Positions 1,919 through 32,045 of a stretch of 64,000 nt of DNA are shown here, in pieces. This DNA comes from Scytalidium lignicola. Taxonomy: Eukaryota; Ascomycota; Leotiomycetes. Every line of letters begins with the position of its first letter. The first letter of the stretch is position 1. Both the position numbers and the translations under genes were made by a program. The stretch spans positions 108,199 through 172,198 of the forward strand of contig NCSJ02000056.1 in assembly GCA_002812745.2 (NCBI GenBank), written 5' to 3'. Under the pieces are notes generated by a model. It had not been told where the DNA came from, did not search any database, and worked only from the letters and a program-made list of their open reading frames with translations.

Positions 1919-2112
1919 TGTCGGTTCACTTGTAACACGAAGTATAGTACACAATTATACATAATATACTCGTTGTACTATTCCATGGTTGTTGTACGAA
2001 TAAGGGTAGGAGGGCAAAGCTATAAAAGCTTCGCTTGTTCTTACTACCTAATCGGGACTAGCTTACAGGGGCACATGAATATCATGTGTACATAACCATT
2101 ATTCTACCAACA
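1919..2112 (-). repeat. LTR of element B (3' LTR in element orientation)
   Basis: A 194-bp direct repeat of 8015-8208 of identical length, diverged mainly by transitions. The right copy has more T/A, as expected from independent RIP of the two LTRs. It ends at 2112 in CCAACA on the plus strand. Confidence 0.9.
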
Positions 2113-10964: not shown

Positions 10965-13900
10965 ATGACAAGACTTAATTTTCTTCTTAATACTGTTATC
11001 TCCCTGCCTTTACTTGCTGCTGCTGCTGTCCCGGCCGACATCCATCTTCAAGCTTTTACCAACTATAGTTCTTTTGATATTCTTAAATGGGTCCCTTCGC
11101 GCGACTACGTGCCTCATAAAAGGTAAGTGCACAGGAATTCCGACTCCCATCCATCCTCAGATTTAGGAATCCTTCTTTTGACACGGACTAATCAATGGCT
11201 ATACAGTGGCATTCCCTTTACTATTAAAAATGAGACCGCTCAGCCCTGGGTTCATTTGGCCCATGTGAAAAACCATGGAAATACTACCAACCCAGAAAAA
11301 CACCAGAAGCGCCAGGCCTGCTCAGGACCTACCCAAGACAATCCGAGCACCTTTTGGTATGAGTCAATTGTCCACGATGGAGAATCATCCTTCATGGAAT
11401 CGTCTTATAAAGCCAACTACAAAGTCTTCCGGAATGTGGTGACGGATTTTCAGGCTGATAACACCGGCACTACTGATGCTTCCGCAGCAATTCAACGGGC
11501 TATCAATGGTAGGTCAATTTTCTTTCTCTCTGGTCGTCAAGGCTGAGCGACCTTGCTAATATGCAATGCGACAGCGGGAGCATCGAACGGCCCTGCTCGG
11601 ACCAGCAATTCCATGGGGACCACTAGTCAACCCGCCATCGTATATCTTCCGGCTGGAACATATTTGATGGAAGGGAGTCTCCAACTCTACGTTGGCACCG
11701 TCATAATCGGTGATGCCCTCAATCCACCAACCCTGAAAGCCAGCTCGAATTTCCCCAATGACCACATCATTTACGGCAAGGACCCGAACCAGGGAGGCAC
11801 CGTTAACTTTTATATGGGAATCAAAAACATAGGCATCGATTCTACAAGCGTGTCCACGACAAAAGCAATTGCTCTGCTGGATTGGACAGTCAGCCAGGCC
11901 ACTCAATTAACGAACATTGTCTTTAACATGCCAGACTTCTCGGATCACGTTGGCATCACTACTCAATATGATTCTAACAGTAATATTATCCTGGTAAGTT
12001 CCCATGGCTGGTTCACATGTTGGAGAATTTCATGCTAATCAACGCATTAGAATGACCTGACATTTTTTGGTGGCTCTATTGGGATAGAATTGAGCGGCCA
12101 GCAATGGATCCTAAAAGGCATCACAATCAACGGAGCAAACACTGGTATCAAAGCCGGGGCATTTCAAATCGTTTGCTTGAAGTGTAGCTTTGAAAATGGT
12201 GCTGTCGGCATTGATGCCAGCGGCGTGTCAGGCTCACTGACGATGATCGACTCTACTGGTAACTCTTTGGGCACCATGGTTACTTCCACCAACTCAGGTG
12301 GCAGTGCCCAAAATTCTATCATCCTGGACAATGTACAAAATACCAACAGTGGTGGCACAGTGACTCTGAATGGAAAAGTCGTTCTCTCAGGAAATGTGGT
12401 GAACACCTGGGTACATGGGAATCTCGTAAGTTATAAACACTCTGTACTTCTAAAGAGTACTCGATTGCCTCCCCGTTACTAATAACCATACAAGTATTCT
12501 AGCGGTGCCACAAGTCCACAGAATGACCAAGGCCTCATGGTCACTACACCGCGGACATCAGCCCTGCTCGACTCAAATTTTGACTACTTTACAATGGTGC
12601 CTCCAACCTACTCTCAGTATTCTGCCAATCAGTTCGTGAATATTAAGCAGGTCAGTGGTCTGCAAGTCATGGGTGATGGGGTCACCGATGACACTGCTAA
12701 TATCAATGCGATATTGCGACAATATGCGGGCTGCAAGATTATTTATTTCCCTGCCGGAACATACATCGTGACCGGTACCGTCTTCGTGCCAGCTGGCTCG
12801 ATCATTGTAGGAGATGCCTATGCCTCCGCCATCAGTGCCGTTGGCTCCCAGTTCTACAATCCAGATGCCCCAGGGACCATGTTCCAAGTTGGAAATGTAG
12901 GAGATGTTGGTGTAGCTCAAATCAGCGACATGGTGTTTACAGTTGCCGATGTCTTACAGGGCTGCAAACTGGTGAGTTAAACGATCAACCATTTCTAAGA
13001 GGAAGAAGAACCACTCCCCTTGCTAACATTGGTACCTCTGGATAGGTCGAGGTGAACATTGCCGGTTCAACTCCTGGTGATGTTGGTTTCTGGAACTCTC
13101 ATTTCCGTATTGGTGGTGCTGCTGGCTCCAAAGTTCAGACCAACTGCGCCGGCACCCCTGATACTTGTAAAGCAGCTTGGGGCCTTCTCCATCTCACCAA
13201 CACCTCCTCTGTTTACATTGAAAATATGTGGGGTTGGACTGCGGACCATGACCTGGATGGTGGCAATCCTCAGAATATCGCAACCGGCCGTGGTATGCTG
13301 ATTGAAGCTACCCAGGGTACATGGCTTGTCGGCACAGCAATGGAGCACCACACGCTGTATCAATATAACTTCGAGTATGCCCAGAACGTCTTCTCTGGAT
13401 TCCAGCAGAGTGAGACTCCGTATTGGCAAGGTGTGGGCGGCCCTGATCTTGACCCTGCTCCGTGGACAGATAACTTGATTGACAGTGACCCCAACTTCAG
13501 CAACTGTGCCGCTGGCGATGCTGACTGCCGCATGGCTTTCTTTGAGCGGATCCGGGGCTCCTATAATTTATTCCTGTACGGAGGTTGTGTCTGGGCATTC
13601 TTCAATGGTGGCGTCGGCCACTCCTGCACTGGTGATTGCCAGGCGAATGCTGTCAGGATCCTCTCATCAGCGGGGTCGGTGTATATGTATGGAACAAACG
13701 TCAAGTCCATCACCAATATTATCGTTGAAAATACGGTTGATGCTGCGACTGAAAGCGCCAACAATGGTGGATGGGGTGGTGTTGTGGCGGCCTACGTGCA
13801 CACCGGGGGAACACCCCCCCCTCCACCTCCACCTCCCCCTCCTAATAACGGTCCTGCTGTCACTGGCACTGGTCTGAATTGGTACAATCCGTCCTTCACT

Positions 13901-14629
13901 GTTGGTAATTCTGGCTACCAAGATCCGCAGTATTACTACTGCTTCGGGGGTCCGGCTTCTAACTTTCCTCCATTCGCAAACTGGATGAACTTCCAAGACA
14001 TGTTCGATCTTAACCAGCAGACCTCGATGGCACTTGAAGAATCAGGTCCAATCCAAGGAGATATTTACAACGCAATCGTAGAAATCTCCCAAAATTCAAA
14101 AGTTGACGCGCGTCTGATTCTAGCAATTATTATGCAAGAGGTAAGAGAGAACCTCCAGTCTAACAAATTGAAGTTGAGATCCCATTTGAAGCTGACAATC
14201 TATAGTCTACCGGCGATGTGTATGTTGGCTGCACTAATAATGGCGTGGAAAACTGTGGCCTCATGCAAGCCTATGCAGGATCGGTGTCCTTTGATCCTAA
14301 TAACGCTCAAGGAAGTATTACTCAAATGGTTAAAGACGGTACCCAGGGAACCTCTCAAGGAGGCGGTCTTGTCCAATGGTTCAATGACCAGAACGTTGGA
14401 GCTAGTACTAATGGCAATCCGTATGAAGTGGCACGAGGATACAACTCAGGCAGCATCAATTATAACGATCTATCAGATGCCCAGGGGGCTACTGCGTCTT
14501 ACGTCAGTGATATTGCAAACAGAGTACAGGTGTGTCTTATTCTTTCAATATTAATCGATTTTTTGCTAATAAGTTTAGGGATGGAATGGTAACGACGGAG
14601 AGGGATATAGATCAAAGTGTGGTTTTTAA
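10965..14629 (+). CDS. Secreted GH55-type exo-beta-1,3-glucanase fused to a C-terminal lysozyme-like (SLT/GH23-like) domain
   Basis: Eight exons close in phase: 10965-11122, 11207-11508, 11575-11993, 12051-12425, 12495-12971, 13046-14140, 14206-14529, 14579-14629 (1066 aa). Residues 1 to about 23 form a signal peptide (LLAAAAVPA). Two right-handed beta-helix lobes of the pectate-lyase-3/GH55 type follow: VVTDFQADNTGTTDASAAIQ with YLPAGTY opens lobe 1, and QVMGDGVTDDTANINAIL with YFPAGTYIV opens lobe 2. A Pro-rich linker lies near residue 831. The C-terminal ~200 residues carry ILAIIMQES (E942 is the candidate acid) and NCGLMQ (960-963), the E-S and GLMQ marks of lytic transglycosylase folds. 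Expected role: extracellular hydrolysis of beta-1,3-glucan, with a second wall-active domain. The glucanase call is strong; the activity of the C-terminal domain is inferred. Confidence 0.85.
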
Positions 14630-15832: not shown

Positions 15833-17377
15833 ATGGCAGCTACGGTTTTACCTACTACGTCCGCGCTTGCGGATTCTCAATTGCTTCAAGATACAACAAA
15901 TATGACGAGGAATCGAGCTGGTGACTCGATTGGTACTGCCTTTGCATCGTTGTCATCCGGTGCTGCCGAGTTACCACCTCAGTACGTTACTCTTAAACAA
16001 AAACTCTGTGGAGGACATGAGAACGCGCTCTTGGATGGATGGAATCGTTTACTTCATACATTGGAAACAGAAATTCTTCCTCAGATCCAAGAATTAGGTT
16101 CAAAGCTGGTCCCCGAGGTTAACTTCTCTGATATAGAAGCAAATGGTGGAAAACTCCCAAAGGTTATAGAGGAGAAATTGAAGACTTGTGGAACACTTAT
16201 TGTACGTGGCATTGTTCCAAGAGAACAAGCTTTACAATGGAAGCAGCAAGTCCGTGATTATATTTCATCCAACCCCTCTACCGGCGGGTTTCCGGCAAAC
16301 AACATTCAAGTTTATGAAACATACTGGAGCAAAGCTCAAGTTGCTGCACGATCACACCCAAATATGCTTGCAACGCACCGAGCCATGAATAATACTTGGT
16401 CTGTGGCTCCTGAGGATCCTATTGTTTTATCAGAACCTCTTTCCTATGCAGACAGATTGAGAATCCGCACAGTAAGTGAGTAATCTTCAATGTAATTCAG
16501 AGCTTATTAGATATAGCCTGGCGACAAATCATTTAATCTCGGACCACACCTTGACGGTGGCTCCCTCGAACGATGGGAAGACACGGAATATAGAAAATGT
16601 TACACCGAAATTCTGAACGGAAATTGGGAGAAACATAATGCGTTTGATGTTACTCCACGTATTAAAGCAAATCCGGATATCCATCATGGCCCAGGTGGCT
16701 GTTCAATCTTTCGTTCTTATCAGGTGCGTATTAACACACTCCTCTCTTTGTAACTGCAAAAGTAGTTTAAATATTGATTTGGAGGGTGGCAGGGCTGGTT
16801 GTCACTTTCGGACTGTGCACCAGGTTCAGGTACACTCCGTGTTTTCCCTAACCTGCTTACATCTACCGCCTACCTCATTATGCGTCCATTTGTGAAATTT
16901 GAGAATGGAGCATGGACTGTTGATGATAAGTCACCAAATTTTCAAGGAGCAGCGATGGGTGCCGGGCAAGAGCTAAATGCCGAGGAGCATCCTCATCTTA
17001 TTCCGCCATATTTTGTGTGTATTCCGGCAGTTGAACCTGGGGATGCTGTTTTCTGGCATTGTGATGTGGCACATATGGTAGAGCCAGAGCACAGAGGCAC
17101 TGAGGATGGTAGCATCTTTTATCTTCCAATTCTTCCTTTATGCGATATCAACATAGCTTATTTGAAGGACCAGAAACTTAGTTTTGAAAAGGGGGCACCG
17201 CCACCGGACTTTCCAGGTGGAGTTGGAGAGACAAAACATTCTGAGAGAGGACAGTTTGACTCCATCTACCCCGCAGGTCGTCCTGCTCTGGGATATGGTC
17301 CATTTGACGTCACTTTAGCAAAATCCGAGGGTGAAAAAATTGCATACGAAAGTGCTAATAAGATATTAGGGTATTGA
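15833..17377 (+). CDS. DUF1479-family Fe(II)/2-oxoglutarate-type oxygenase
   Basis: Three exons (15833-16471, 16517-16723, 16793-17377) close in phase to 476 aa, the usual size of fungal DUF1479 proteins. The start is a clean ATG in CCATGG context. The jelly-roll core carries PHLDGGSLERW (H224, D226) and, about 150 residues on, FWHCDVAHMVE (H376 is the likely third ligand), giving the HxD...H iron triad. RGIV and RAMNNTW are further family marks. The substrate is unknown for this family. It lies at the left end of the UstYa/RiPP region beside an SDR gene and on the same strand, so it is a candidate tailoring enzyme (oxidation or hydroxylation). It could equally be an unrelated catabolic oxygenase. 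Confidence 0.85.
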
Positions 17378-17858
17378 AATTAGGATTAAGAAATTTCATA
17401 AGAGAGAGGGGCAGTATTGTACTAGAACAGTCTAACTGAGGTTGACGATAATGATTTGTATGATGATCTGGCTTCCCTTTTTGTGTAATTATGGCATTAA
17501 AACTTAANTTTTTTATTTTAGTGAACTTAAACTTTGAATCTATCAAGCCTTTTAACAACCATAGAGTATAACATGCATCCCTACGAATATCTTCTGATAT
17601 CCTGATTAAAACAGTTGTGTTTTGGAATATTATAGCAAATGTAACGTTGCCATACATATCTATGTACTATTATAACAGCCTGAGGCATTTAATATTTGAC
17701 TAGTATTGAACAAGTGTAGTATTTTCTTCTTCTTTTGCTCTATTTCCCTGAGTACAACATCCTTGGTGTTACATACTCGCGCCTTCCAAAACAGACTAGG
17801 CAATCTCAAAATATTTTGAAGTTTGTTCCCAAGAACTTCTTGTTGAACACAGTTTAAA
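17378..17858. other. Intergenic with one N
   Basis: 481 bp between the DUF1479 and SDR genes, with an unresolved base at 17508 beside a T run. Short minus-strand frames here have no coding signature. It should hold the SDR promoter. Confidence 0.5.
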
Positions 17859-18921
17859 ATGAATCCATCAGTGTCAACCCCGCTCTTCCCACTGTTCTCA
17901 CTTAAGGGCAAGACTGCGATTGTATCAGGAGCAGGCGCTGGACTTGGCCTAGCTATCGTACATGCTCTTGCTGAAGCTGGAGCAAATGTAGCAATTTTGT
18001 ACCATACGAATAAGGAAGCTATCGAGAGTGCTAAAGTTGTAGAGCAAACGTATCAAGTAAGGTGTAAGTATAATGAAAGTAATGGACATAAGGCTAGCAT
18101 GTGACCTTTCTATTATACTCTCTTGCTAATATATATTGTAGGTACCGCATATCAGATAGATCTCAAAGAGGAGCAAGATGTGGAAGGCACTATTAATCGT
18201 ATCATTACTGAATTTAATGGTCGTCTCGACATTTTTATCGCAAATAGTGGCATTGCATGGAACGAAACAGCAGCTATTGACAGCAGTGTGACTCATTATC
18301 ATGAAATAATTGCTACTAACCTTGACAGTGTTTATATATGTGCGAGAGTGGCTGGCCAGCACTGGCGACGTCAAGTAGTAGAGGGAACTACAATTAATGG
18401 AGAGAAGCTAGTAAATTTTAAATGTGGCAGCTTTATAGCTACTGCTAGTATGAGCGGTCATATTGTTAATGTTCCACACATTCAAGCAGCATACAATGTC
18501 TCCAAAGCCGGTGTAATCCATCTATGTGAGTTTGAAAAATGGTCTATATTCTTCTCTATAGAATGCTTATCTTGGTATTTAAATTATAGGTAAATCACTG
18601 GCTGTAGAATGGGCAGGGTTTGCACGTGCAAATAGTGTCTCTCCTGGATATATAGAGAGTGGACTTACTGGTAGTTCGCCCGAACATCTGAAGGATGTAC
18701 TTCGAGAAAAGACACCACTGAGGTTCGTACTGTACATCGTGCTCTCGACTATCACTCCTGTTTTAAGGTTACTGAGATTAAAATTAACTAACCATAACTT
18801 TATTAGACGGATAGGAGAACCATACGAGTTGAAAGGAGTCTATCTTTATCTTGCATCAGAAGCCTCGAGCTTCACAACGGGTACTGATATTATTGTCGAT
18901 GGAGGGTATTGTTTATTATAG
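17859..18921 (+). CDS. NAD(P)-dependent short-chain dehydrogenase/reductase
   Basis: Four exons (17859-18063, 18142-18525, 18590-18722, 18807-18921) close in phase to 278 aa, a classical SDR length. The cofactor loop is SGAGAGLGLA (G24-G30). NSG stands for the NAG motif, Ser171/Ser173 lie in ATASMSG, and the catalytic pair is YNVSK (Y186, K190). SPGYIESGLTG and a C-terminal FTTGTDIIVDGGY follow the sorbitol/mannitol-dehydrogenase-like subgroup. It is a soluble oxidoreductase acting on an alcohol/ketone pair; the substrate cannot be read from sequence. It stands 480 bp after the DUF1479 gene on the same strand and about 750 bp from the first UstYa gene, so a role in peptide tailoring is possible but unproven. 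Confidence 0.88.
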
Positions 18922-19667
18922 TAGAACTCTTCCTCTTTTATCGTTATGTGAAATGGAAGAGAATGTTCGTTCGCTTGCCTTACAGCTGCTTAGTTAAGTA
19001 GTTTGCTTCGACTGATAAGTTGTATATTGTGAGTAGTGCTTAGATATGCTACTTTATATCCTGCGTAAGACAGCAAGTTAACGAACAGCATTACTACACA
19101 AGTACTCTTGGCTGCCTTCTCCAATGGAGAAGCTGTGCCTAGAGTTTACTGGCGATCTGTTCTGCCGAGCTGTGCAAGTGATTATCTATAACCGTTAGCC
19201 GTTAGTTGACAATTCAATCGTTGAGTCTTCTCAGCAGGAAAAGAGGAGTTGCGGTTTCTGCTCTAATGGAACCACAATAAGCAACCGGCCAGGACCCTTT
19301 CACAGTCAACTCCAAGTCGTTACTAAAAGGAATGCGTACGTACGGAGGTCATGGCAATATGTAACCGGATTTCTGTTCAAGCCACCAAGTACTACTACCG
19401 GTCTTTAACGCTAGTCTAGATATGTAATCAATCGTACGTAAAGTTTAACATATAATAACACTTCTTCACACTATTAAACATAAAGTTATTAATTCTTAAT
19501 AACAGTTATAATAACAAAAGTTGGTAAAAGTAATAAGAGAGATGGTAAAAGAGGCGGTGGGAGAGATGGTAATCCTTACGCTTAATAGACAAATATGCTT
19601 GAATATATGCAATTTATTCTCTAGTTTGGCCTTGTCCTCAATTTCTAGTATAATCTAAGAGGGTTCC
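18922..19667. other. Intergenic between convergent genes
   Basis: 746 bp between the ends of the SDR (+) and the first UstYa gene (-). No coding frame; AT-rich from 19430 to 19560. Expected to hold two 3' UTRs. Confidence 0.5.
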
Positions 19668-20816
19668 TCAGGGAACCTCTGCCAGAATCAAGGCTCCTTC
19701 ATGAGGAACCACATCCATATCCACAAGTAACATTTCCTGCCTTCTTTCTGCAAATTCACGAATAGCATCGAAATTTCGACATTTATGCTCGCGATTGAAA
19801 TCCGGAAATGGGTGTGGGGGGTCCCCAACCCAGAGGAAGGGTTGTAGACCTGTATCAGCAGTACACATCAGGGTTTGACGAAGTGTGTCGAGACAGTGTC
19901 CTAATAAAATTATAACTGTTAACTTGATCGTCAAACTAAAAGGGCAATATTAAAAGAAAGAAGCATAAGACAAAGCTCTAGAGACAAGGGGAAATGAAAC
20001 GCCCAAGTTACCTATGTGAAGTTTGAGTGAGTCTTCATTGTTCGCAAACGCGCCTTTACCTAAGTTACGGTAGTAGTTATAGTTGAAATGGATACTTTGA
20101 CGGAGTAGGTTCTGTTACATATCAATCCGTCAGAGTTCCTGAAATATTAATGCTGATATGGAATGATCTCACAAGACAATGGAGTTGGTGCAGCGCTTCA
20201 ACAATCACTGGATAGCCTGGCCCTCCATTTTTTTCTCCGACTTTCAATCTATCTGGAGATATTCCTGATCGTTCAACTTCTTCAACGGGTATTACCATTG
20301 GCTTGTCTAAAATGCAAGATTAGACCCAGGCATCACACGTAACGTTATAATCTCAGAGCTTCAATTCTTACAATCTACTCCTAAAGCAAGCCATGCTGCA
20401 TCTACTTCTGGACTTGCCTCTTTTCGATATATGGTCTCTTTAAAGAAAGAACCGTTGAATTTTGTGGATGTGTATGTGATATCTACGGAGCCTAAAACAG
20501 GCGCTAACAAATTGTCAATACGACAAGAGGTCTATAATGCTATAGTCAGGATGGTGATGTAGTACTTACTCCAACTTTGTGATGTATGAAGAGCACAGGT
20601 CTTGTCAAGGTGGTGGTTTTGGTTATACCTAGTAAGGAAAAAAGTGGTCGTATTAGTGACAAGAATGACCGCGACGCATAGAGCAAGCCATCGATATTGC
20701 AGAATTGTCTTCTGCTTCAAAAATGGTGCTTCATGTACTCTAAGTTCGGGTCTGTCACCATTCTTTTCTCTATCATCAGCGAGGAATGGGATACTTGACT
20801 CCTCAGTGTGACTCAT
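19668..20816 (-). CDS. UstYa-like (DUF3328) oxidase, copy 1
   Basis: Five exons on the minus strand (20816-20570, 20503-20372, 20306-20173, 20111-20012, 19900-19668) close in phase to 281 aa. The N-terminus is cytosolic, followed by a single membrane segment (RWLALCVAVILV...), then the lumenal domain. Both family motifs are present: HQLHC (H166-C170) and HIGHCLDTLRQ (H203-C207). In ustiloxin-type pathways UstYa/UstYb proteins carry out oxidative cyclisation or other oxidation of Kex2-released core peptides, and the paired HxxHC motifs are thought to be the active site. The gene points away from the precursor at 24703-25137 and is tandem with copy 2. Strong family call; substrate inferred from context. 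Confidence 0.9.
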
Positions 20817-21549
20817 TATCTTTATTCTACCGTTTGAAAGATGAAGGTATTGAGAATAGAGTAACTTGACGCTTAGAACTACTACTAACGTACGAGAAGA
20901 AAAAGTCCGGGTATCGGAGACGGATCCGGATTTGTCATTGCTAGCAGTGTACCCTTGAAGAGTTAACTCCTGTTTCTCGGTTCTGAACAGGGAGGATCGA
21001 ATCCTAGGTGTTGTGTGCTAATATTTTGAGTGAGGTTTTGAGCCAAACAGACCTTCGTGCGTGCACACGTGTATATAATGCTTGCATGGGCAGTTATTAC
21101 GGATCCGTGGATCTTACATTGAATACATTGTCTGATTATCTGCAGCATTGTATTATGTAGATTCCCAATTTGAACTGGGATCAGAATAAAGCTATACGTT
21201 CTAGACACTAATACAGTAGCATAATGCATGATATTTTAAGGTTGAAACTCATTCGACGAAGAATATATATCTTTTGTTAATGACCTAGATGGTAACAAAC
21301 GGAAACTTATAATTATTGTTATGATGAGGTGGCTTTATAAAGCAGGAACTGGCTTTTGCTATGCAACGTCATTATACTTCTTTACAACTAAGAAATGTTA
21401 TGTTCATTTACTATTTTCAGTTTTTCCTTCTACTTAATCAAGCATCACTTATGAGCTTAACCTTTTTTTTAATTTTTTTTTTATCTATTAAACAAGTCAT
21501 TCATAATTTCACTCACTTCTGGAAACGTTATTGACTAGAGTGATAGTGC
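20817..21549. other. Intergenic between two tandem UstYa genes
   Basis: 733 bp, upstream region of copy 1 and 3' end of copy 2. A T-rich run lies at 21460-21485. No coding frame supported. Confidence 0.5.
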
Positions 21550-22719
21550 TTATGGTATCCAAGTCCCGTGAGTCGGTCTCGGTTGAATCTTCGCCTTTTC
21601 TACCTCGGTTAATACATGAATTCTGTCCATGGCCCATTGTTGGATATTGTCCCATTTACGACAGGTATGAGGCGCTTCCGGCTTCAGGACGGCCTCCTTT
21701 CTCGTATCTGACCAGAACCATTTCATAGGTGTCATATCAGCGTGGCATTGTACGGCCTGGCGAACAAAATCTATGCAATGATCTAGTGCCAGGTCTCATG
21801 TTAACAAGGATGTGTGTAAATGGTTTTTTTGTTTCTTGGGCCCATTTCTACTTACCAAGGTGGATCCATGTAAACTCTCTTTTTGAAGGATCATCAGGAA
21901 AGAGATAATAATCTCGATAAACTGCCATTCGCACAATATTCTAACATCAGTATAACGTTAGTTCTGCAAGAGCATCTTTATGATGAATCTCAAACGATTT
22001 AACATGCCAGGCAATGAAGAGTATGATGTACTGTAAAACTATTAAGCGTCAGCTGAATTGTTCCAAATGCTACTTGGTAAATAAATTACCCAGTAAAATA
22101 TTTGTCGGTCCCTGGCCATACCAAGGTATCCTGAATACCTTCAGCCTCATCTTCTTCAAGATCAATGTTGATAGCTTTCTTGGTGTCAGCAAAGCAAATT
22201 GATGGCCTTACAAATTTCACATACGTTGTATAAGATTAGCCCAGGCCTTGTCAATAGCATCACTGGGCGGCCCAGTATACTGGATGTTGGAGTTGTTGAC
22301 TCTGCGAATCCACTGCCCATTCTCGACAGCCAGCTCGCCTGTAAAATGTATATCGACTAGTTCCACTGTAGATCTTGAAGTAGCTGTGATGAACTGTTAG
22401 CTTTACTGGTTGTTGATGTGAATAAGTATAAAATACCTAGTTCCGTTGCAAAACCATGTTCATAGCTGGGACCTCGAGTAAGAAGGATGTGTTGTCGATA
22501 TAGTACCCCTAAAAGCACAACTGTGATGCTAGCAAAGATACAGGCTAATAGGGCCCAGAAGTCGAATCTCAGGTCCCAAAAATTACCCCTTCGCGAAGAA
22601 GGTTCTCTTGCGTATGGATGTGCGTCTCCATCGTTCTTCTCTTCATTCAGAGGTTCGTAAAGGACTGGGTCTCGTGACGGTCGTCGTGAGAGGAAGAGCA
22701 TGATCGATTTTTTGCTCAA
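21550..22719 (-). CDS. UstYa-like (DUF3328) oxidase, copy 2, one junction unresolved
   Basis: Minus-strand exons: 22719-22437, 22338-22225, about 22174-22090, 22030-22008, 21940-21856, 21782-21550. A membrane segment (FWALLACIFASITVVLL) follows a basic cytosolic tail. The lumenal part has WIRRVNNSNIQYTGPPSDAI, the first motif HHTLHC in the 23-nt exon, and a second motif HLDHCIDFVRQ made when the last intron ends at 21783. The intron after the first motif would start with GC (GC-AG). The frame does not close between exon 3 and the small exon with any GT-AG choice I tried, so there is either an unusual splice, a sequence error or a real one-base break. First and last exons (283 and 233 nt) equal those of sister genes, so the family call is firm; integrity is not. 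Confidence 0.75.
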
Positions 22720-24702
22720 GAGGAACTGGCTCAGACTAGGAGGAGAGAAGGTTAGGCTTGGTGAACGTCGATAAGGAGGGAATTTCTCTCAACACTGCTA
22801 CCGGAAGACTGGCTTCAGAATAGTTTTCCGCATAAAATTGGTTAATGGCGTGTCCAGCCGGTTACGGCGCAGCCCCCTGTTGGATTCTACAGTAGATTTC
22901 ACACGTTTGGGATCGTCGGTAGATCAATGGTATACCTTAATGATGAGTTGTCAGTATAATCAAGGTCGTGGAATGAAGAAGTGCAGCGATTGGGCAATCC
23001 AAAGTGAATCTGATGATGATGCAATTAGGTAGGATGATGATACCTGAACTTACCCCCCACTCTGACATTAGTCCCCGGGATCCTATATTACAATACTGTA
23101 CTGTACAGTAGAAATACGTCCGCATCTACCCTTGTATTGGTGGAGCAGTAGATAGAAATCCTAGCTAAGCCGCCGCCCCCCTCCTTAAATATTCCACACA
23201 TGCAAGGGTCAAAACTGAGATTCTGAACAAGGACTGCAAGGACCTTATGAGCTCACTTGGGTAATATTCATAAAATAGAATCTTCATTTTACAAGGGTTA
23301 TGCAAGGGTTTGAGCAAATGAGATCACGCAAATTACACTTTTGCCCTTGTATGGGTGAAGTATTTAGGAGAGGGATAGTAAAGCAACAATACTAAAAGTG
23401 GTTCAAAATGGCTTATGGGGATAGTTGCCCAGGTTACACTAATCCTACACAATCCTGTAGATGACTCTGCATTGTCAGCACTAATCCAGTAGGCAAAACA
23501 AAACTAATTAGTTGCCGTTTATGACACGACTTGCCCACACATACGGATACCCGGCGAGGCCCTTGTGGCGCCGCTGCTCCCGCTCGGCCGTTTCCATAAA
23601 CGGGTCTAATAGGAGTTTTCCGGTGGTCCAAACACTCATCCTCCCGCACCCACTGCAAGCCACATTCACTCCCCCTTTTCTACAGCACAACTCTCTGTAG
23701 AAACAATGTTGGCTCATGACTGAGAAAACGGATACGTCCGACTAAGAGACTTCAGCTAAAAGACTAGCTCGAACACGTTTGCACCCATAGTCCACCTTGC
23801 TCGACTGATTCCTGCCCAAATAACGAATCAATGACAGTAGGTTGTCGTTCGCCCAATTCTCTTTCGATCTCATATTTCTCGGTCTGAAAGTGTAGAACAT
23901 GTGAGGGAAGTAGTCGGTACCACCGTATACTAGTAAGTTAGAAAGTTCTTACACAACACCCCTCCTGAAGCCGCTAGACAAACACGACTTCTGTTGCTGC
24001 ACAGCACACGCTTGACCCCACGTGCAACTTTGGCTGGTAAATGCTTAGGGCGATCTGGGAGAAGGAAAGCCAGTACGGGTCCAACGGTGCATTAGTTCTA
24101 GATCCTCGCGAAATAGCCCCCGGAGCTACTGCACCGTTCTGTGGCAGGGGAACGTTGAGTCTGACACCCCCCCGGCTTTTCTGATGAAAACAAGTACATC
24201 TGCATCAAACTAGCTTAGTATAAACTTTGATCGAGAATAAATCGGCTAGGGAATTGCTATACTTTGCAGTTTCAGGGTAGTTGAACCAATATTTGAGAAC
24301 TTGCATATTGCTAAAATAGAACAAAACAAAACGAATTCCTATACCAAGTTGGGAAATCTGTGGTGACCGTCATGTCGGTCAGCATGATCGATGATTGGCG
24401 TCTCGCAAAATACGCGCACATTATTAAAAGTAGAGATTACGTTAGATGATATTTTATGAGACATTATACGTTCATGCTTATATTTCCTCGTTAAAAATTG
24501 CTTATATTCAACATTGACTAATGAGTGACGGCGATGTACATCTACCGCAAAAAAATAACCAGTATATTTCATGTTGCATGTTCATCAAAATACACTAACT
24601 CGGTAACTTCTTATGTGGAAACTTCGCATATCTCGCTTTGACAATCTCGGCATTTTAGACCACTCGCTATGAACTGTGGGGTTGCGGGAAGACAGCGACT
24701 CC
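22720..24702. other. 2-kb gene-free stretch between UstYa copy 2 and the precursor gene
   Basis: No domain or convincing spliced gene. Short frames overlap on both strands at 23434-23717 and a 77-aa minus frame lies at 24339-24572; none has recognisable motifs. The segment should hold the copy 2 promoter and the precursor 3' UTR, and could hide a small intron-rich gene that I cannot resolve. Confidence 0.45.
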
Positions 24703-25137
24703 TCATTTGTCGAAGTAGACGTAATTGCCATTGTCGGGGGTCTGACGCTTCTCCTTGTCGAAGTAAACGTAATTGCCATTGTCTGGAGTTTGTCTCTTCT
24801 CCTTATCGAAGTCAACGTAGTTACCATTGTCTGGAGTCTGGCGCTTTTCCTTGTCGAAGTAGACATAATTACCATTGTCTGGAGTTTGACGCTTTTCTTT
24901 GTCGAAGTAGACATAATTGCCATTATCGGGGGTTTGACGCTTCTCTTTATCAAAGTAGACGTAGTTGCCATTGTCGGGGGTTTGACGCTTCTCCTTGTCG
25001 AAGTAGACGTAGTTACCATTGTCTGGAGTTTGGCGCTTCTCCTGATCAAGAGCAACAGCTACTTCGGGTTCAGCGATAGGAGCAGCGATGGCTACTTGCA
25101 TGGCTGCAAACACAACAACAGCGCTTGAGAATTTCAT
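24703..25137 (-). CDS. Repeat-bearing secreted precursor peptide of a candidate dikaritin-type RiPP
   Basis: Single-exon gene, 144 aa. Residues 1 to about 19 are a signal peptide ending AIAAP. A short acidic leader follows, then seven perfect-register 16-residue repeats (residues 33-144) of the form EKRQTPDNGNYVYFDK. Each repeat carries the Lys-Arg pair recognised by Golgi Kex2-type proteases, so the repeats would be cut into up to seven Q-T-P-D-N-G-N-Y-V-Y-F-D-K cores. Repeat 5 has Asp for the second Tyr (residue 109; codon 24811-24813). The repeats are 48-bp tandem DNA units that differ by silent changes. This architecture and five UstYa genes in cis are the hallmark of dikaritin (ustiloxin/asperipin-like) RiPPs. 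The product is not one I recognise; the biological activity is unknown. Confidence 0.85.
   Translation of the reverse strand: MKFSSAVVVFAAMQVAIAAPIAEPEVAVALDQEKRQTPDNGNYVYFDKEKRQTPDNGNYVYFDKEKRQTPDNGNYVYFDKEKRQTPDNGNYVYFDKEKRQTPDNGNYVDFDKEKRQTPDNGNYVYFDKEKRQTPDNGNYVYFDK
24706..25041 (-). repeat. Seven 48-bp in-frame tandem repeats within the precursor gene
   Basis: 7 x 48 bp = 336 bp exactly, each coding one 16-residue unit. Units differ at third positions (for example GTCGAAGTAGAC versus ATCAAAGTAGAC) with one missense difference in unit 5, so the peptide is conserved while the DNA drifts, which suggests purifying selection on the core. Confidence 0.9.
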
Positions 25138-25646
25138 TTTGGCTGACTTGAGAGAAAATGACTTGATACCAAGAAGATTTAGTCGTTAGATTTGTTGTAA
25201 AATGGAAGACAACCCACAAGCACAAGAGTGAAATGGACGGGTAGCAATTAGATCTTTATATGCAAGGAAATTGACTGAAAATACTTTACCTTTCTTGGCA
25301 TCGAGTAATAATGGTGTCTTAGCACCGCTGGTAGAAAACTGCATAAACTGAGCAGTTGCTCGAGAAGGATTTCGTAAAAGGGATCTTTGACAAGAAAGGC
25401 AGGTGAGATGTATGCAGCTTCGTCACCTTGCAAGTAAAGTACATGGCCAGGATCAAGTGAAGATAGGCCGAACGGGGGGTGGTTGCTCCACTTCAAGATA
25501 TGCGTGTCAGTCTGAATAGAGGGTTTTTGCACATTGAAACTTGTTCCCCAACTTTCCAAATTATAAACCACTCTTTTTTTCAATCAAACGCTCTACATCT
25601 TTCTTAAAACAATATACCCTGATATCCAATTTCCAATTCTTAACTC
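25138..25646. promoter_or_regulatory. Divergent promoter between the RiPP precursor and UstYa copy 3
   Basis: About 510 bp between the start of the precursor (-) and the likely start of UstYa copy 3 (+), the only bidirectional promoter in the RiPP region and so its likely control point. A 111-codon minus-strand frame (25248-25583) crosses it; it has no motif I recognise and I do not call it a gene, though it could be a small unannotated one. No transcription factor gene lies inside the candidate cluster. Confidence 0.5.
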
Positions 25647-26601
25647 ATGTATCCTTTTCTAAAATCGTCTCCATTTTCTTCTCTAAAGAAAAACTTCTTA
25701 CCACCCAGTGAGTGGTAATTCTGACAATGAGTCGACACCAGACTTTGTGCAAGCACAGAACAGGATTTTCTTGAAGCTTTGCAGACAAATCAAGCTTTTG
25801 GCTGTTTGTTCTACATTTCTCCTGGTCCTTCTGTTTATATCTGTTATCGGACATGTCTTTCATCCGACAGTATCTTCCGTGTCTGCTTCACAAAATCTCC
25901 ATCTTGACCATGTCCGTTTGGCACCCGAGTGTATGTATATCTGCAACATTACTACTGGTATATGGCTCTAATTGGGTGATGTTTTTAGTTCCTCTTGTGA
26001 CAAAAGTATTCGAAGGTGGCCCACCTATAAGAGAAATCACTGAGGAAATAGAACTACGCTGGCAAAATGATATGCCGAGTAAGTGTTACAATTCACATCA
26101 CATCTAGTCAGTGAAGTTTCTAGCTAATGATGAAGAAAGTGGGCCGAGGGTTTGTACGTGTCCCAACAGGCGGTGCTGGCTCAGCTGAGGATATTTTCAC
26201 CGTCGCCGTCTATCATCAGTTACACTGCTTGGTAAGGTTAGAACGGACAAGTTCAGAGAGACAAAAGTCAGCTAACAACAATATAACTATAGTATATGAT
26301 GCAGCAATCTTTTACTCGGGCCATAGAGAACGCGTCGCAAGTGCCTCAAGCCGAGGTAACTCACACGTACCATTGCGCAGAACTTCTGCGTCAAGCTCTC
26401 AAGTGCTCTGCGGATCCATCCCTAGATACGGTTATCGACATTCCAGATAGTCCTACAGGGCATGGAACTAGTGGGTGGGGTGGAATTCACGTTTGCAGAG
26501 ATTACGAAAGTCTATTTGCGTGGACAGAGGAGCATCGTACGAGTGACCGAATCGGTGCGGGCAGCATAGCTGGACCGCATGACGGCCACGCCGGTCACTA
26601 A
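25647..26601 (+). CDS. UstYa-like (DUF3328) oxidase, copy 3, start uncertain
   Basis: Exons 25742-25930, 25989-26078, 26140-26231, 26293-26601 close in phase. An ATG at 25647 joins them only through a 34-bp GT-AG gap (25708-25741), unusually short for an intron, giving 246 aa; a different 5' exon or a sequence error is possible. The membrane segment is LLAVCSTFLLVLLFISVI. The lumenal domain has GGPPIREITEEIELRW, GRGFVRV, the first motif HQLHC and the second motif HTYHCAELLRQ, then a VCRDYESLFAWTEEH tail shared with sisters. Same expected role as copy 1. It starts a run of three UstYa genes reading away from the precursor. Confidence 0.85.
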
Positions 26602-27321
26602 ATAAACTGGCTCGGAAATAGTTTCAATTGGTGTCCTAATTCAAGGAGTACATTTGCAGTAATAGCTAGCTGAAATCAAAGAGTGAGATTGTGGATTCTT
26701 CTAACAAATATCTCTTCCCGTAATGCAGATGAAACTTGGCAAGATTGACAAATAATCTTCGCTGGCTGGGAACACGTGTGTGAGGAATTCGTTTCATTTA
26801 ATATATATAGTATAGATCTCTTATGCCCGTAAAGTTATTATCATCATGTATCATGCATTAAGTCTCTAGCGCTGAACCTTCGCGCATAACAAGCATGCCA
26901 AGCATGCCAAGCCCTCCAGGGGCGACGACCGTTGTGGTAAATAGTCCCAATGTTACAGTACTCGGTCTCACATACCCTACTCGCCTGCATACTTCCTTAC
27001 CAAGGTATCCAGTGCTCTACAGCAGTACAGTAGCAGCAGTTGCATAACCTTAAACGAAGCGCCTGATTGGTCCACACTACTCTTCCTCCAGACCACCGGA
27101 TCGCTCACACAGTTCTGCAATCCATGCACTGACTGGAGCCCTGGCTCCGGCTCCGGCTCACATAGATTCTTCCCATCGATTACCAAGATGATGCATCCCC
27201 CGTTACTTGGCTCCAAGGCTTGTCTGTCTCTCGCCTTTACTCGGCACATCGAGACTGTTGGCCACCGAACTTTCATGTCCAAAGAAACTTTAAACTAAGA
27301 CCAGCGCAACCAGAGGAAGAC
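26602..27321. other. Intergenic, no gene seen
   Basis: 720 bp between UstYa copies 3 and 4. A short repeat of AGCATGCCA occurs at about 26890-26910. A 101-codon minus frame (26977-27282) lacks motifs and overlaps the probable copy 4 promoter. Confidence 0.5.
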
Positions 27322-28342
27322 ATGAAGAGTGAGAATAACCATGAATCGCTGGACTTCAGCCAAGATGATGGCCATCCCCTCATGGCAAGCGAAAACTGGG
27401 ACGATGAAGAATCGATTCAATTGCAGAAACGGCCAGTTCGAACGAAGAGGTCCCGGAAGGTTTGCTCTGCTATTTTGTCCATCAGATATGTCCTGGATAC
27501 CGTTCTCCTTATTTTAATATTGGTCTTTCTAGTGACAACAAGATCTCACAACCGCCCAGACCAGCTGGAAACTTCTGGAGATATTACAGGCTTTGCGCCG
27601 ATAGGTAAGTGGCCGATTCGGCTCTTAAAACTGGCAACACTGTCTTGATAAATCTACTGAACGAGATTCTATTGAATGCTGATTTTGAGCATGCACAGTT
27701 CGCCGTCAGATAAAAAGTTTTGCTCACGATTCGTCCTTTACCCCCGATGATCCCGCCGACTGGTTTACCAACCGTGTCAAGCAAAATTGGCTTAATCTTG
27801 TACCAAGTAGGTATTCATACCTATTCCAGACTTTTGTATTATACTAAGACTTGGTACGATAGAGGGCCTTGGATATGTCCGGATTGACAAGCCAGAGGAG
27901 TATGACAATCTCCCCGAGCCACTGCCAGAGTACGATTCCACCGTCTTCACGACTTCAGTGACACACCAGCTCCATTGCTTGGTAAGCTTAACTTTATCAT
28001 CTTTATGGGCATAATAATGACCGTCAGTCTCATAATATCTCTAATAACCGCTAATAATGTCATTAGTATAAACTTCAAGAAGTTTTCTCATCTTTCATGC
28101 TTAACAGGACTGAAACCCAAGAGTTTAAGGAGACAGTATGGCATAGCGGACACTGCTTTGAATACTTACGTCAAAGCATCTTGTGCTGTGGCGATACAGC
28201 GCTCGAGGGTAAACAGACATCATTTCCTGACAAGAATCTCCCAGGGAGCGATGGCTGGGATGCGAAACATATATGTCGAAATTATGATCAAATCCGTAAC
28301 CATCTGGAGAGAAACAGAGTAAATGACAAAGTGTGGATATGA
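27322..28342 (+). CDS. UstYa-like (DUF3328) oxidase, copy 4
   Basis: Four exons (27322-27604, 27699-27806, 27863-27981, 28067-28342) close in phase to 261 aa. Exon 1 is 283 nt, as in copy 2. A Lys/Arg-rich cytosolic segment (KRPVRTKRSRK) precedes the membrane helix (VLDTVLLILILVFLV), giving a type II membrane protein with a lumenal catalytic part. Motif 1 is HQLHC (H165-C169) and motif 2 HSGHCFEYLRQ (H196-C200). The GLGYVRI stretch and the ICRNYDQI tail are typical. Expected to act on the secreted core peptide in the ER/Golgi lumen. The upstream frame from 27220 is not needed: the ATG at 27322 gives a normal-length protein. Confidence 0.9.
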
Positions 28343-28801
28343 ATTTGACAAATGAAGTAAATCTACTAGCCCTTTAAGGGATATTTTAGAGGAGAGATTC
28401 CTCCTATAAACAATTTTAAAATAAACGTATGAAAATATACTGAACTATCAGTTATTATGGTCCAATATCCTGGTTGTGTATCAGNTTAGCTAGCTAAACA
28501 ACATCAGCGACAGTATTAATACCGTGGCCAGTTCTTATTGAGTTAAACATAGATGTGGAAACTCAATTCCCTCCCCGTGGCAGTTACCGGACGCCTGCCC
28601 AGGAAAGGAAGGTAAGCAAAGACATTGCGTCCCTTTATAATTGGACGCCATATTAGTGTATTGGAGCTCTCTGGCCTTTTAAGCGTACACATTCGCCATT
28701 GTTCCACAGATAATCTCCGTCTCAGCAAAAAGGCTCTAGTGTTATAGCAAGATCCGCAACCACTTTGCAGACTTCTGTTTCTCTTATCCAGGCAAATAAT
28801 T
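28343..28801. other. Intergenic with one N
   Basis: 459 bp between UstYa copies 4 and 5, with an unresolved base at 28485. No gene on the plus strand; the minus frame 28543-28836 overlaps the start of copy 5 and looks like a shadow. Confidence 0.5.
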
Positions 28802-29923
28802 ATGTCTACATACCAACCTCTCCCTACTGGGGACAATGAAAATTATACATCCAAATCTCTCCACCCCAATTCCGATTTACCATTTCAACCCATCTCGTCG
28901 CCAATCCCGCTAGTTAACAGACCTTGGTTTATTAGGCTCTGGGCTACACTAACATTAGTACTTACCCTATGCAATGTGTGGCAGTTCTTCAACGTTAGGC
29001 TTAAATCTGAAGCTGTAGTCGGCCTTGGTACCTTCGAAAAAGGGTTCGACAACGAGCTACGTTTGTGTCCTTTCTAATTGTATCGCATTTCTATTATTAA
29101 TATAACTATTATCACATGTAGATGCCGGACGAGCCATAATCAAGACGATAGAAGTCAAATTTTCAGGAGATCCAGAGTTTGCAGAGGATGGGACGCCAAG
29201 ACTACCAATAACCCCTCCTGGTGCTCTACGATTTGTGGGAACTCCGGGTCCAGAAGTTGATGAAGCATGGGAGGGGTTAGGGTTAGGAGGTATCATAGTT
29301 CCAATTCAACTTTCAAAATAAGGTGAACTAATACTTGCAAATAGCGCGATTCTTTCTCTTAAGTGAGGAAGAAGCAAAGGAGAACTTGGGCGAGGCCTAC
29401 AAACGTTTTTGGGACCCGAAATACAATGGCTACTTTGTGGAGTGAGGTCCACTTCGATTTACAATCGTTATGGAATAGTCGTTAATGTGCAAGATAGGCT
29501 GGACATGTTTCATACCTTACATTGTCTAGTAAACAATTACTCTGCCAAGTACAACTTTACAGATAGTTAACAATCACCTAGGATCACATTCGCCAAGCCT
29601 TTTATCCTGATGCTTACCCACAAACTCCACTTCACGGCGAAGTTCATCGAGGTAAGATAAGATTGCTCAGATAATCTTAAGTAGCCTGCTAACAACGATT
29701 ATTATAACCTGCAGACCATTGTATTGATCATATCCGGCAAATGGTCCAGTGTCATGGAGATCTAACACCGATCCCATCAATGTGGGTCGAAGGCATTCAG
29801 CAAAGTTATATTATGTCTGATAAAGTTCATGTTTGTCGTGACTTTGATTCAATACGAGAATGGGTTTGGGACAGGTTCAATGGGAGTTCGGCGGTAAATA
29901 AATTGTCAAATATAGAAACGTAG
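28802..29923 (+). CDS. UstYa-like (DUF3328) oxidase, copy 5
   Basis: Six exons (28802-29060, 29122-29289, 29345-29441, 29498-29528, 29582-29651, 29715-29923) close in phase to 277 aa. A short cytosolic tail is followed by the membrane helix WFIRLWATLTLVLTLCNVW. The lumenal domain has VKFSGDPEF, GTPGPEVDEAWEGLG, motif 1 FHTLHC (H180-C184) and motif 2 HRDHCIDHIRQ (H207-C211), then a VHVCRDFDSIREW tail. This is the most canonical UstYa of the five, and a good candidate for the principal cyclising partner. Last gene of the candidate cluster before a 1.6-kb gap and an LTR. Confidence 0.92.
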
Positions 29924-31505
29924 GCTAATTAGAGACGTCATGGGAAGTTCAGGAAACACTTTTTGCCACGAAAATATGTCAAAACTCCTGACAGTTCTAC
30001 TCCTGCGCTCATTAATTGCAATTTAAAAGACTAAAAAAGCTTTTATTGTCGTAGAAGGTAGTTTGGTTGATATTATATCTCGTTATTTGGTCGGATTTTG
30101 AGCTTAGGTCATGTAGCATAGACCTTTACAGCTCACAGCAAAGAAATAACTAAAAGCCAAAGGTCACTTTTATGCATACAAGCACTCAAAGCTTAGCCAA
30201 CTCATATTTTCCGATGTTTTGTCTCCATATACATGTCGTTTCCGAACTCATATTAACACACTAAAACAGCATATGACTGTATAATGACCTGAATTCGATC
30301 CGTACTAGCCATTATATGAGAAATTTAGTTCGATTACTTATATTAAAACATCACAACTGATGGCAGCAAGTCAATCATAATTATATGAATAAGACTTCTT
30401 AATCTACCAACATAACTCCATGATGTTTAGAATCTCTCAAACTACAGTGTGCGATATCTATGGCAGACACAAATTCCTGAAAATTCCCTTCTATTCCTCA
30501 AGCGCTAAGCATCCAGATATACAGAATATTTAAACTAGATAACATAAATCTTTATACCCATTAGATTCTCAAGCCACTACTCTCGTATGAATGTTTTCTG
30601 TAATTTAGGGAGATTTAGGGAGCCCCGGATTAGCTCCAGAGATGACAAAATAGAGATAATTTATTGCTGAGAGAAGTAAAACACTAGGAGACATCAAGAG
30701 TATTCCAAACGTATTAATCAAAGACATCTTACCGAGAGTGTATTTTCCATACCAGTTATTTGCTATTAAAATGCCTAGCAACTTGATTCCTGAGTTTTAA
30801 AAACTTAACAATGCTGAAGCTGTAAGCTCCCCACTCTCTTTCCAGTTATCCTATTGGGCAATTCTGAAAATAGGAATAATGACTCGGTTTCTACAACATG
30901 TGATACTCCCCAAATGAAGTCCATTGCTTGCATGCTGTGAGCTTCTAATCTAGTGCTGGGAGCGAAAGTAAAAGAGTAGAGACACACGATAAGATATCAA
31001 ATAATATAAGAAGATCTAACTCAGAAGTCATTAAGGGTTCATTTATATTAGAAGATTAGCCGCCTCCCAGTTAACTAGCACTTGGAACTTACGTACGTAG
31101 CCAGTAGATAACTAGGTCTTTATCATGGTTTTCCCCTAGTAGTTTTCCGATACGTTATAGATTTTAAGTCCAGATAATGAGTTTTGTTTTTCAATTTGCC
31201 CAATTAATAGTTTCCATATAACCCTTCAGCTCAGTCCCTGTATTCTGATCGCCCAAACCACTCTGAACTTCTATAATCTAGAACTTTTATGATACAAGGA
31301 GTCCGATTTATGTTGCTGTAGCAGCATAACATATTCCCTTGTATATCAAGACATATACTATAATATCAATGTTATATTTAATTTGTGTTAGAGATAAAAA
31401 ATTAGTTGAGAGGAAAATCAACGATTTAAGACCTCTTCATCCATAGTTTGAGTTTATTGTCGGGTTACAAATTGAAATTTCACCAGGACTAAATAAATTA
31501 TAACG
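29924..31505. other. Gene-free 1.6 kb right of the RiPP cluster
   Basis: AT-rich, no supported gene. The 60-codon minus frame at 30805-30987 has no motif. A plausible cluster boundary, since the next feature is a transposon footprint. Confidence 0.5.
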
Positions 31506-31764
31506 TGTTGCAATATTTGGAGTTTACGGATGCCACTTCACAGTGTTCTTACGGTTGCCTATGCTAGGGCTGACGGATAGGGTTTACGGTAGGCTACCAC
31601 TGTAGGCAACTATAGGCACCCGTAGGGTGCCTGTACGACCGTAACTGTTGACCATAACGGTTTTACGGCCGTAACTCTCTGTATATATAGAATCTGCTGT
31701 AGCTGTAGACTCCTTAAGCAACCAATACAATAGTGGTTCTGTATTCCTGCGTTTCCAGTCAACA
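31506..31764 (+). repeat. Solo copia LTR with target-site duplication
   Basis: 259 bp, TGTTG...CAACA, flanked on both sides by TAACG (31501-31505 and 31765-31769). Nearly the same sequence as the LTR at 8679-8937 but less AT-shifted. No internal sequence is present, so it is the product of LTR-LTR recombination. Confidence 0.92.
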
Positions 31765-32045
31765 TAACGCTCATGCTATTAATTAATAACGTGTTTAGAG
31801 TGGCTGACTCATGAAAATTTTAGTTACGGTAAGTGTGGGATCTTACCCGGGTGGGATGTGGGGACTGTGGAAATTATCATACTTCAAGAACTTCAAGAAG
31901 GGAGAGCACATACGGACGTACTGTTCGGCCGCTCTTTTTATTTCATCTAGATACATATATGTCTGCATTAAAATTTAGAATTACTCCTATATTTACTCCA
32001 CTCCATTTATACTGCAGGTGATCATCTTTTACTAAAATCGTTGTT

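What the first reader, a model, noticed from the sequence alone, without database searches (positions are those of the whole stretch)
15833..29923. Candidate new dikaritin-type RiPP cluster with five UstYa genes
Seen: a signal-peptide precursor with seven Lys-Arg-separated repeats, five UstYa/DUF3328 genes with paired HxxHC motifs on both sides, and a DUF1479 oxygenase plus SDR at the left edge. Known: ustiloxin, phomopsin and asperipin clusters pair such a precursor with UstYa/UstYb oxidases after Kex2 cleavage. Inferred: this makes an undescribed cyclic peptide from the core QTPDNGNYVYFDK. No tyrosinase, P450, peptidase, transporter or regulator is seen in the cluster, so it looks like a minimal, UstYa-rich type.
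Basis: partly seen in the sequence, partly recalled or inferred. Interest (0 to 1): 0.92.

Follow-up and report, generated by a model that had tools for sequence, protein, structure and literature searches.

The report
Likely fungal cyclic-peptide gene cluster
A mould carries a gene for a protein made of seven near-identical short peptides, flanked by five genes for copper-type peptide-modifying enzymes, so it probably makes an undescribed cyclic peptide; it is a good new example of a kind of cluster already known to be common in fungi.

Summary
The window lies in Scytalidium lignicola. At 24703-25137 (-) there is an intact 144-aa precursor: signal-peptide-like N-terminus, then seven QTPDNGNYVYFDK units separated by EKR. 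Over the 13 core codons the units show 11 silent variants and one replacement (Tyr to Asp, unit 5), where 78% replacements are expected by chance (p = 5e-7), so the peptide itself is under selection. Five UstYa/DUF3328 genes (PF11807, each with two HxxHC motifs) flank it; the start of one is unresolved. They are old paralogues (18-31% identical). UstY-A and UstY-D have 55-69% identical relatives that appear to share one contig in Xylogone sp. and in Rhizodiscina lignyota. Six-frame search of 18.9-32.0 kb found no other Pfam domain.

Best reading: a dikaritin-type RiPP cluster without tyrosinase, product unknown; a new member of a known kind. A 2020 survey counted 1,758 precursors with DUF3328 neighbours, phomopsin also has five, asperipin's cluster also lacks a tyrosinase, and this genome has at least four more such loci. 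Ring formation, linkage site, expression, and membership of DUF1479 and SDR are untested. The first score of 0.92 is too high.

The parts
24703..25137 (-). Kex2-processed repeat precursor, 144 aa: signal-peptide-like leader and seven QTPDNGNYVYFDK(EKR) units (unit 5 NYVDFDK)
   Evidence: the only match in the own genome is itself
24707..25043 (-). 48-bp tandem array coding the seven core units
   Evidence: TRF score 457; 11 silent versus 1 replacement variant over the 13 core codons
19668..20816 (-). UstY-A, UstYa/DUF3328 protein, 277 aa, HQLHC and HIGHC, five exons; public model B7463_g3987
   Evidence: PF11807 E 2e-62; models; P0033 98%
21550..22701 (-). UstY-B, UstYa/DUF3328 protein, 285 aa, HTLHC and HLDHC, six exons (one GC-AG intron)
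   Evidence: PF11807 E 1.6e-40
25647..26601 (+). UstY-C, UstYa/DUF3328 protein, about 242 aa, HQLHC and HTYHC; first exon uncertain
   Evidence: PF11807 E 1.6e-19
27322..28342 (+). UstY-D, UstYa/DUF3328 protein, 261 aa, HQLHC and HSGHC, four exons; first half of public fused model B7463_g3991
   Evidence: PF11807 E 1.3e-22; P0001 identical over 254 residues
28802..29923 (+). UstY-E, UstYa/DUF3328 protein, 277 aa, HTLHC and HRDHC, six exons; second half of public fused model B7463_g3991
   Evidence: PF11807 E 1.4e-37; P0001 identical over 131 residues
25138..25646 (.). shared divergent upstream region between precursor (-) and UstY-C (+), possible common promoter (inference)
   Evidence: gene order
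15833..17377 (+). DUF1479 / Gig2-like oxygenase-family protein; cluster membership unproven
   Evidence: PF07350 E 2.4e-142; PDB relatives GIG2 6akz and YbiU 2dbi; oxygenase role recalled
17859..18921 (+). short-chain dehydrogenase/reductase, four exons; cluster membership unproven
   Evidence: PF13561 E 5.4e-49

Best explanation
This is a dikaritin-type (KEP plus UstYa) RiPP cluster without tyrosinase. The precursor enters the secretory pathway, the kexin of the fungus cuts after each EKR, and carboxypeptidase trimming would leave QTPDNGNYVYFDK(E). Membrane-anchored UstYa proteins, each a probable copper enzyme through its two HxxHC motifs, then oxidise the peptide. The likeliest first step is a phenol-ether bond from Tyr8 to the beta-carbon of Tyr10 or Phe11 (close spacing as in known dikaritins). 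The remaining UstYa proteins would make further rings, desaturations or hydroxylations, as several UstYa proteins of phomopsin do. Shown here: the precursor, the five genes, the motifs, selection on the peptide, and a gene with a kexin-type P domain in the genome. Inferred: cleavage, copper binding, cross-linking, the residues involved, and any role of DUF1479 and the SDR.
For: Precursor anatomy and seven KR-bounded units. 11 silent to 1 replacement variant among units, expected replacement fraction 0.78, p 5e-7. Five PF11807 genes with paired HxxHC, each with its strongest hydrophobic stretch within residues 35-69, fitting the single membrane helix reported for CctR. One PF01483 (P-proprotein) match in the genome, at C80. 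A- and D-type proteins with equal listed contig lengths, so presumably on one contig, in Xylogone sp. PMI_703 (55% and 69%, 6,927,901), Rhizodiscina lignyota (60% and 68%, 3,322,451) and Xylariales sp. PMI_506 (48% and 47%, 1,160,136): 3 of the 4 named species, S. lignicola aside, that show both types among the 151 proteins retrieved (names compared by eye). HxxHC(x)nHxxHC as a binuclear copper site in CctR: PMC12435403 (parts 1 and 2 of 3 read). Three phomopsin UstYa homologues act in cyclisation and desaturation: PMC10512285 passages.
Against: No expression or metabolite data. The precursor has no relative at E <= 1 in 5.8 billion proteins, so conservation of the core across species is untested; the S. 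lignicola precursor itself seems absent from that database too. No peptidase for end trimming and no transporter seen in the cluster. The best-scoring relatives of UstY-B and UstY-C among the 151 proteins are only 33-34% identical (only the best 120 of 379 hits were listed). The start of UstY-C is unresolved. A shared contig of 1-7 Mb does not prove a shared cluster; in Pyricularia pennisetigena the listed contig lengths of the A- and D-type proteins differ.
Confidence: 0.78

Rival explanations
1. The precursor is an unmodified, linear Kex2-processed signal peptide (for example a pheromone-like or hormone-like KEP), and its UstYa neighbours serve something else.
For: Most KEPs (6,120 of 7,878) have no DUF3328 neighbour, and the yeast mating factors among them are linear (PMC7329392, section 7).
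Against: Five UstYa genes flank it on both sides; mating-factor KEPs are almost never accompanied by DUF3328 (three exceptions, PMC7329392 abstract); the core has two Tyr, and Tyr is commoner in the DUF3328-linked repeats (65.6% versus 38.2%).
Confidence: 0.1
2. The UstYa genes belong to a small-molecule (non-ribosomal or polyketide) pathway with DUF1479 and the SDR, and the repeat protein is a coincidental neighbour.
For: DUF3328 proteins also occur in polyketide and non-ribosomal pathways (PMC12048977 section 22; cyclochlorotine, PMC12435403). DUF1479 and the SDR lie beside UstY-A.
Against: No PKS or NRPS domain between 18.9 and 32.0 kb in six frames, nor among the 20 flanking open frames tested (not every base of the window). 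Precursor and UstY-C share a divergent upstream region.
Confidence: 0.07
3. The cluster is decaying: UstY-C lacks a clear start, so the pathway is partly broken and makes no final product.
For: No in-frame ATG upstream of the UstY-C body; the only splice solution found has a weak donor.
Against: The other four UstYa genes and the precursor read through without stops. The published S. lignicola draft is from Ion Torrent reads (PMC6256649, whole text), where small length errors in base runs are a known weakness (recalled), so a frame slip may be artefact.
Confidence: 0.05

Closest known systems
Asperipin-2a cluster (Aspergillus flavus)
   Same: Repeat precursor with Tyr-rich core, UstYa-type oxidase, no tyrosinase in the four-gene cluster, a reductase gene (aprR) in it (PMC6514808 passages)
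   Different: Asperipin has one UstYa gene (AprY), a transporter and core FYYTGY; here five UstYa genes, no transporter seen, core QTPDNGNYVYFDK, and an SDR of unproven membership rather than an isoflavone reductase
Phomopsin cluster (Phomopsis leptostromiformis)
   Same: Five DUF3328 proteins (PMC7329392 section 7) and a KR-bounded repeat precursor (PMC6514808 passages); core begins Tyr-Val (recalled: YVIPID), here YVYFD
   Different: Phomopsin needs the tyrosinase PhomQ and has a methyltransferase; S41 peptidases and a zinc-finger regulator are conserved in such clusters (PMC6514808 passages); none of these seen here
Ustiloxin B cluster (Aspergillus flavus)
   Same: KEP with two UstYa-type genes near the precursor
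   Different: Tyrosinase UstQ required with UstYa and UstYb; 15 genes in all (PMC6514808, PMC10512285 passages)
Cyclochlorotine DUF3328 enzymes (CctO, CctP2, CctR)
   Same: Same enzyme family and HxxHC(x)nHxxHC motif, shown to bind copper in CctR (PMC12435403)
   Different: They act on a non-ribosomal peptide

Membership tests
Dikaritin / KEP-UstYa RiPP | Precursor with ER signal peptide and tandem repeats bounded by Kex2 (KR) sites | tested here: met
   Seven units, EKR spacers; signal peptide judged by hydropathy and eye only
Dikaritin / KEP-UstYa RiPP | At least one DUF3328/UstYa gene beside the precursor | tested here: met
   Five, the nearest about 0.5 kb away
Dikaritin / KEP-UstYa RiPP | Side-chain cross-linked product derived from the core | not testable with these tools
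   Needs LC-MS/MS and gene deletion
Tyrosinase-dependent (ustiloxin/phomopsin) subtype | Tyrosinase gene in the cluster | tested here: not met
   None of the 11 PF00264 matches in the genome is on contig C521; none in six frames
Tyrosinase-dependent (ustiloxin/phomopsin) subtype | S41 peptidase, methyltransferase and Zn-finger regulator in the cluster | tested here: not met
   No such domain at 18.9-32.0 kb; the methyltransferase near 48 kb and the transcription factor near 41 kb lie in another gene group
Asperipin type | Tyrosinase-free, single UstYa, transporter and isoflavone reductase | tested here: not met
   Tyrosinase-free, but five UstYa genes and no transporter seen
UstYa / DUF3328 enzymes | PF11807 domain with paired HxxHC motif and an N-terminal membrane helix | tested here: met
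   5 of 5 proteins; helix by hydropathy only, and UstY-C's N-terminus is uncertain
UstYa / DUF3328 enzymes | Copper- and O2-dependent activity | not testable with these tools
   Shown for CctR in PMC12435403; not assayed here
Fungal mating-pheromone KEP | Pheromone-type repeats without DUF3328 neighbours | tested here: not met
   Five DUF3328 neighbours; the precursor's only Pfam match is MAP1B_neuraxin (E 3.9e-5, 23.3 bits, no single stretch passing), read as chance on a short repeat

The most novel reading that the evidence does not exclude
A tyrosinase-free, UstYa-only dikaritin pathway in which five anciently diverged UstYa copper enzymes act in series on one core, installing several cross-links or dehydro residues in YVYF, with an A-D enzyme pair kept together across fungal classes (Leotiomycetes, Dothideomycetes; the class of Rhizodiscina is recalled). 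That would make UstYa-only multi-step peptide oxidation a distinct subtype.
Probability: 0.3. Interest if true: 0.55.

Novelty: new member of a known kind. Interest (0 to 1): 0.36.

Why it matters
Only five dikaritins had been reported by 2022 against at least 838 KEP types (PMC10512285 passages), and what most UstYa proteins do is unknown. A compact cluster with five UstYa genes and little else is a convenient system for assigning one reaction to each UstYa, and unit 5 (Tyr to Asp) is a built-in control for which Tyr is linked.

Tried and rejected
Precursor relatives: phmmer against 5.8 billion proteins gave none at E <= 1. A local control shows that an identical copy would have scored E 8e-90 at that database size, so not even the S. 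lignicola precursor seems to be in that database; the absence therefore says little about other fungi. A second copy in the own genome: only itself. Full-text search for five pieces of the core sequence: 0 papers. PDB relatives of UstY-A by sequence: none at E <= 1 (the other four were not tried). Alternative exon joins for B, C, E and SDR gave broken frames or a non-canonical site and were replaced. Considered and rejected: recent tandem duplication of UstYa (pairwise identity 18-31%; in the midpoint-rooted tree A falls apart from the other four, B groups with E, and C with D, each at a deep node; 140 of the 151 retrieved proteins were used, P0001 and P0033 left out as the window's own and 9 left out for length). 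Chance array: excluded. Supplementary tables of the KEP survey (PMC7329392) could not be opened, so whether this KEP is already listed there is unknown; the genus Scytalidium is in that survey, which started from annotated proteins. Not tried: structure prediction, fold search, Rfam, promoter scans; none would have changed the verdict.
Full report
What was checked. The window is contig C521:108199-172198 of a 46.85-Mb fungal genome in 664 contigs. Two public proteins listed with a contig of exactly 172,198 bases match the window's genes and are named Scytalidium lignicola: B7463_g3987 (98% to UstY-A) and B7463_g3991 (99.6% to UstY-D over 255 residues, wrongly fused to UstY-E). The published draft is strain DSM 105466, from oak leaf litter, Ion Torrent reads, 47.7 Mb in 826 contigs, AUGUSTUS annotation (PMC6256649, whole text). 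Its contig count and size differ from those of the held genome, so the strain is inferred.

The precursor. One open frame at 24703-25137 (-) codes 144 residues: 18 residues with a hydrophobic core and an A-x-A site, a 17-residue stretch ending EKR, then QTPDNGNYVYFDK seven times with EKR between. The seven DNA units have diverged: against their consensus, over the 13 core codons, there are 11 silent variants and 1 replacement (Tyr10 to Asp in unit 5). Random changes would be replacements 78% of the time; binomial p = 5e-7. The units are not independent (copying between units), so the p value is a guide. The plain meaning is that the peptide is kept while its DNA drifts. Tyr8 is kept in 7 of 7 units, Tyr10 in 6 of 7 and Phe11 in 7 of 7.

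The five UstYa genes. Manual splicing gave complete models for A, B, D and E and a model for C with an uncertain first exon. With the two left genes, 25 of 26 introns are GT-AG and one is GC-AG. All five proteins match PF11807 well over the cut-off. Each has two HxxHC motifs (A HQLHC/HIGHC, B HTLHC/HLDHC, C HQLHC/HTYHC, D HQLHC/HSGHC, E HTLHC/HRDHC) and a strong hydrophobic stretch near the N-terminus. CctR, a studied member, is a membrane-anchored dimer whose HxxHC(x)nHxxHC motif holds two coppers per monomer and which uses O2 and electrons (PMC12435403, parts 1 and 2 of 3 read). Copper use by the five proteins here is inferred from the motif.

Age and relatives. The five proteins are 18-31% identical to one another. 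In a tree with 140 of the 151 retrieved proteins, A lies in a clade with Xylogone, Rhizodiscina, Fonsecaea and Cladophialophora proteins (support 0.96), and D in a clade with Xylogone, Rhizodiscina and Thozetella (0.95); B groups with E and C with D at deep nodes. So they diverged long before these species. Of the 151 proteins, 74 are nearest A, 38 nearest D, 38 nearest E and 1 nearest B (these counts include the window's own P0001 and P0033). The list held only the best 120 of 379 profile hits plus the 32 hits of UstY-E, so B- and C-type relatives may be hidden. Four named species other than S. lignicola had both A- and D-type proteins in the list (names compared by eye; unnamed entries not counted). 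In three the listed contig lengths are equal, so the two are presumably on one contig (Xylogone sp. PMI_703, Rhizodiscina lignyota, Xylariales sp. PMI_506); in Pyricularia pennisetigena they differ. The contigs are 1.2 to 6.9 Mb, so this suggests linkage and does not prove a cluster.

Surroundings. Six-frame Pfam search of 18925-32020 with stops read as X found UstYa in five frames, nothing in the sixth, and no other family at E <= 0.001. To the left are an SDR and a DUF1479 (Gig2-like) gene (PDB relatives GIG2 and YbiU). DUF1479 occurs at five loci in the genome over the cut-off; only the window's is on a contig with a UstYa match. So nothing but proximity ties these two genes to the cluster. 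To the right, from 32 kb, is a macro-domain gene, then after about 36.8 kb a group with acyl-CoA dehydrogenase, CoA-transferase, HpcH/citrate-lyase-type, transporter and methyltransferase genes, which looks like a separate group.

Same genome, other clusters. PF11807 matches (54 exon-level hits) fall into 29 loci by my grouping. I scanned the 28 others (20 at up to 10 kb, 8 at 6 kb) for single-frame KR repeat proteins: 4 of 28 have one (none in the last eight): C188 (PPYHPNIDVVDKR type), C340 (DGADEYGAKWAKR type), C228 (12 ESPYYKR units, with a tyrosinase match 1.5 kb away) and C44 (a di-histidine type). Repeat genes interrupted by introns would be missed. Reversed sequence as a control gave 3 hits, each a mirror image of a true array. 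The window's locus has the most UstYa genes by exon hits. One P-proprotein (kexin-type) match exists (C80).

Known background. In 1,461 fungal genomes 7,878 KEPs were found; 1,758 (22%) have DUF3328 neighbours, on average 1.7 each; two are used for ustiloxin, five for phomopsin and one for asperipin; Tyr occurs in 65.6% of the DUF3328-linked repeats (PMC7329392: abstract, section 7, part 1 of section 6 and passages seen). Asperipin's four-gene cluster lacks a tyrosinase; ustiloxin and phomopsin need one (PMC6514808, passages). Venturia inaequalis has nine dikaritin clusters (PMC9632046, passages), so several per genome is not unusual.

Mechanism proposed. Secretion, kexin cleavage after EKR, trimming of the C-terminal KR, then copper-dependent oxidation by UstYa proteins in the secretory lumen. 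Known links run from a Tyr phenol oxygen to a nearby residue's side chain (beta-carbons in asperipin, PMC6514808 passages); the conserved YVYF block fits Tyr8 to Tyr10 or Phe11. With five UstYa proteins, more than one oxidation per core is likely. All steps after translation are inferred.

Verdict. Novelty is at the level of a new member: undescribed core, and an uncommon combination (five UstYa genes, no tyrosinase) that I did not find described in what I saw of the papers. Searches behind that last statement were made; the original phomopsin and victorin reports were not held.

Noticed in passing
L023 (C228:7500-17499): A fuller dikaritin-like locus in the same genome: repeat precursor with 12 ESPYYKR units, a tyrosinase match and a UstYa match.
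   Followed up: partly
L010 (C188), L020 (C340), L025 (C44): Three more KEP-UstYa loci with quite different cores (PPYHPNIDVVDKR, DGADEYGAKWAKR, and a His-His type whose units lack Tyr).
   Followed up: partly
27322-29923 and P0001: The public gene model B7463_g3991 fuses UstY-D and UstY-E into one protein; the genes appear separate here.
   Followed up: yes
32022-33940 (+): Macro-domain protein followed by a SIR2-like stretch (SIR2 part by eye), resembling macrodomain-linked sirtuins (recalled); Pfam sees only Macro.
   Followed up: no
36860-53760: Acyl-CoA dehydrogenase, class III CoA-transferase, HpcH/citrate-lyase-type enzyme, fungal transcription factor and MFS genes together; may be an organic-acid (itaconate-like) degradation cluster (interpretation by inference).
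   Followed up: no
1-8000: Very AT-rich block (GC 0.20-0.26; most other 2-kb steps 0.36-0.52), as in repeat-induced-mutation relics, ending about 7 kb left of the DUF1479 gene.
   Followed up: no
11127-14592 (+): Pectate-lyase-fold (perhaps glucanase) gene split over several frames; introns, decay or sequencing errors.
   Followed up: no
34404-34832 (-): DDE_3 transposase fragment right of the cluster.
   Followed up: no
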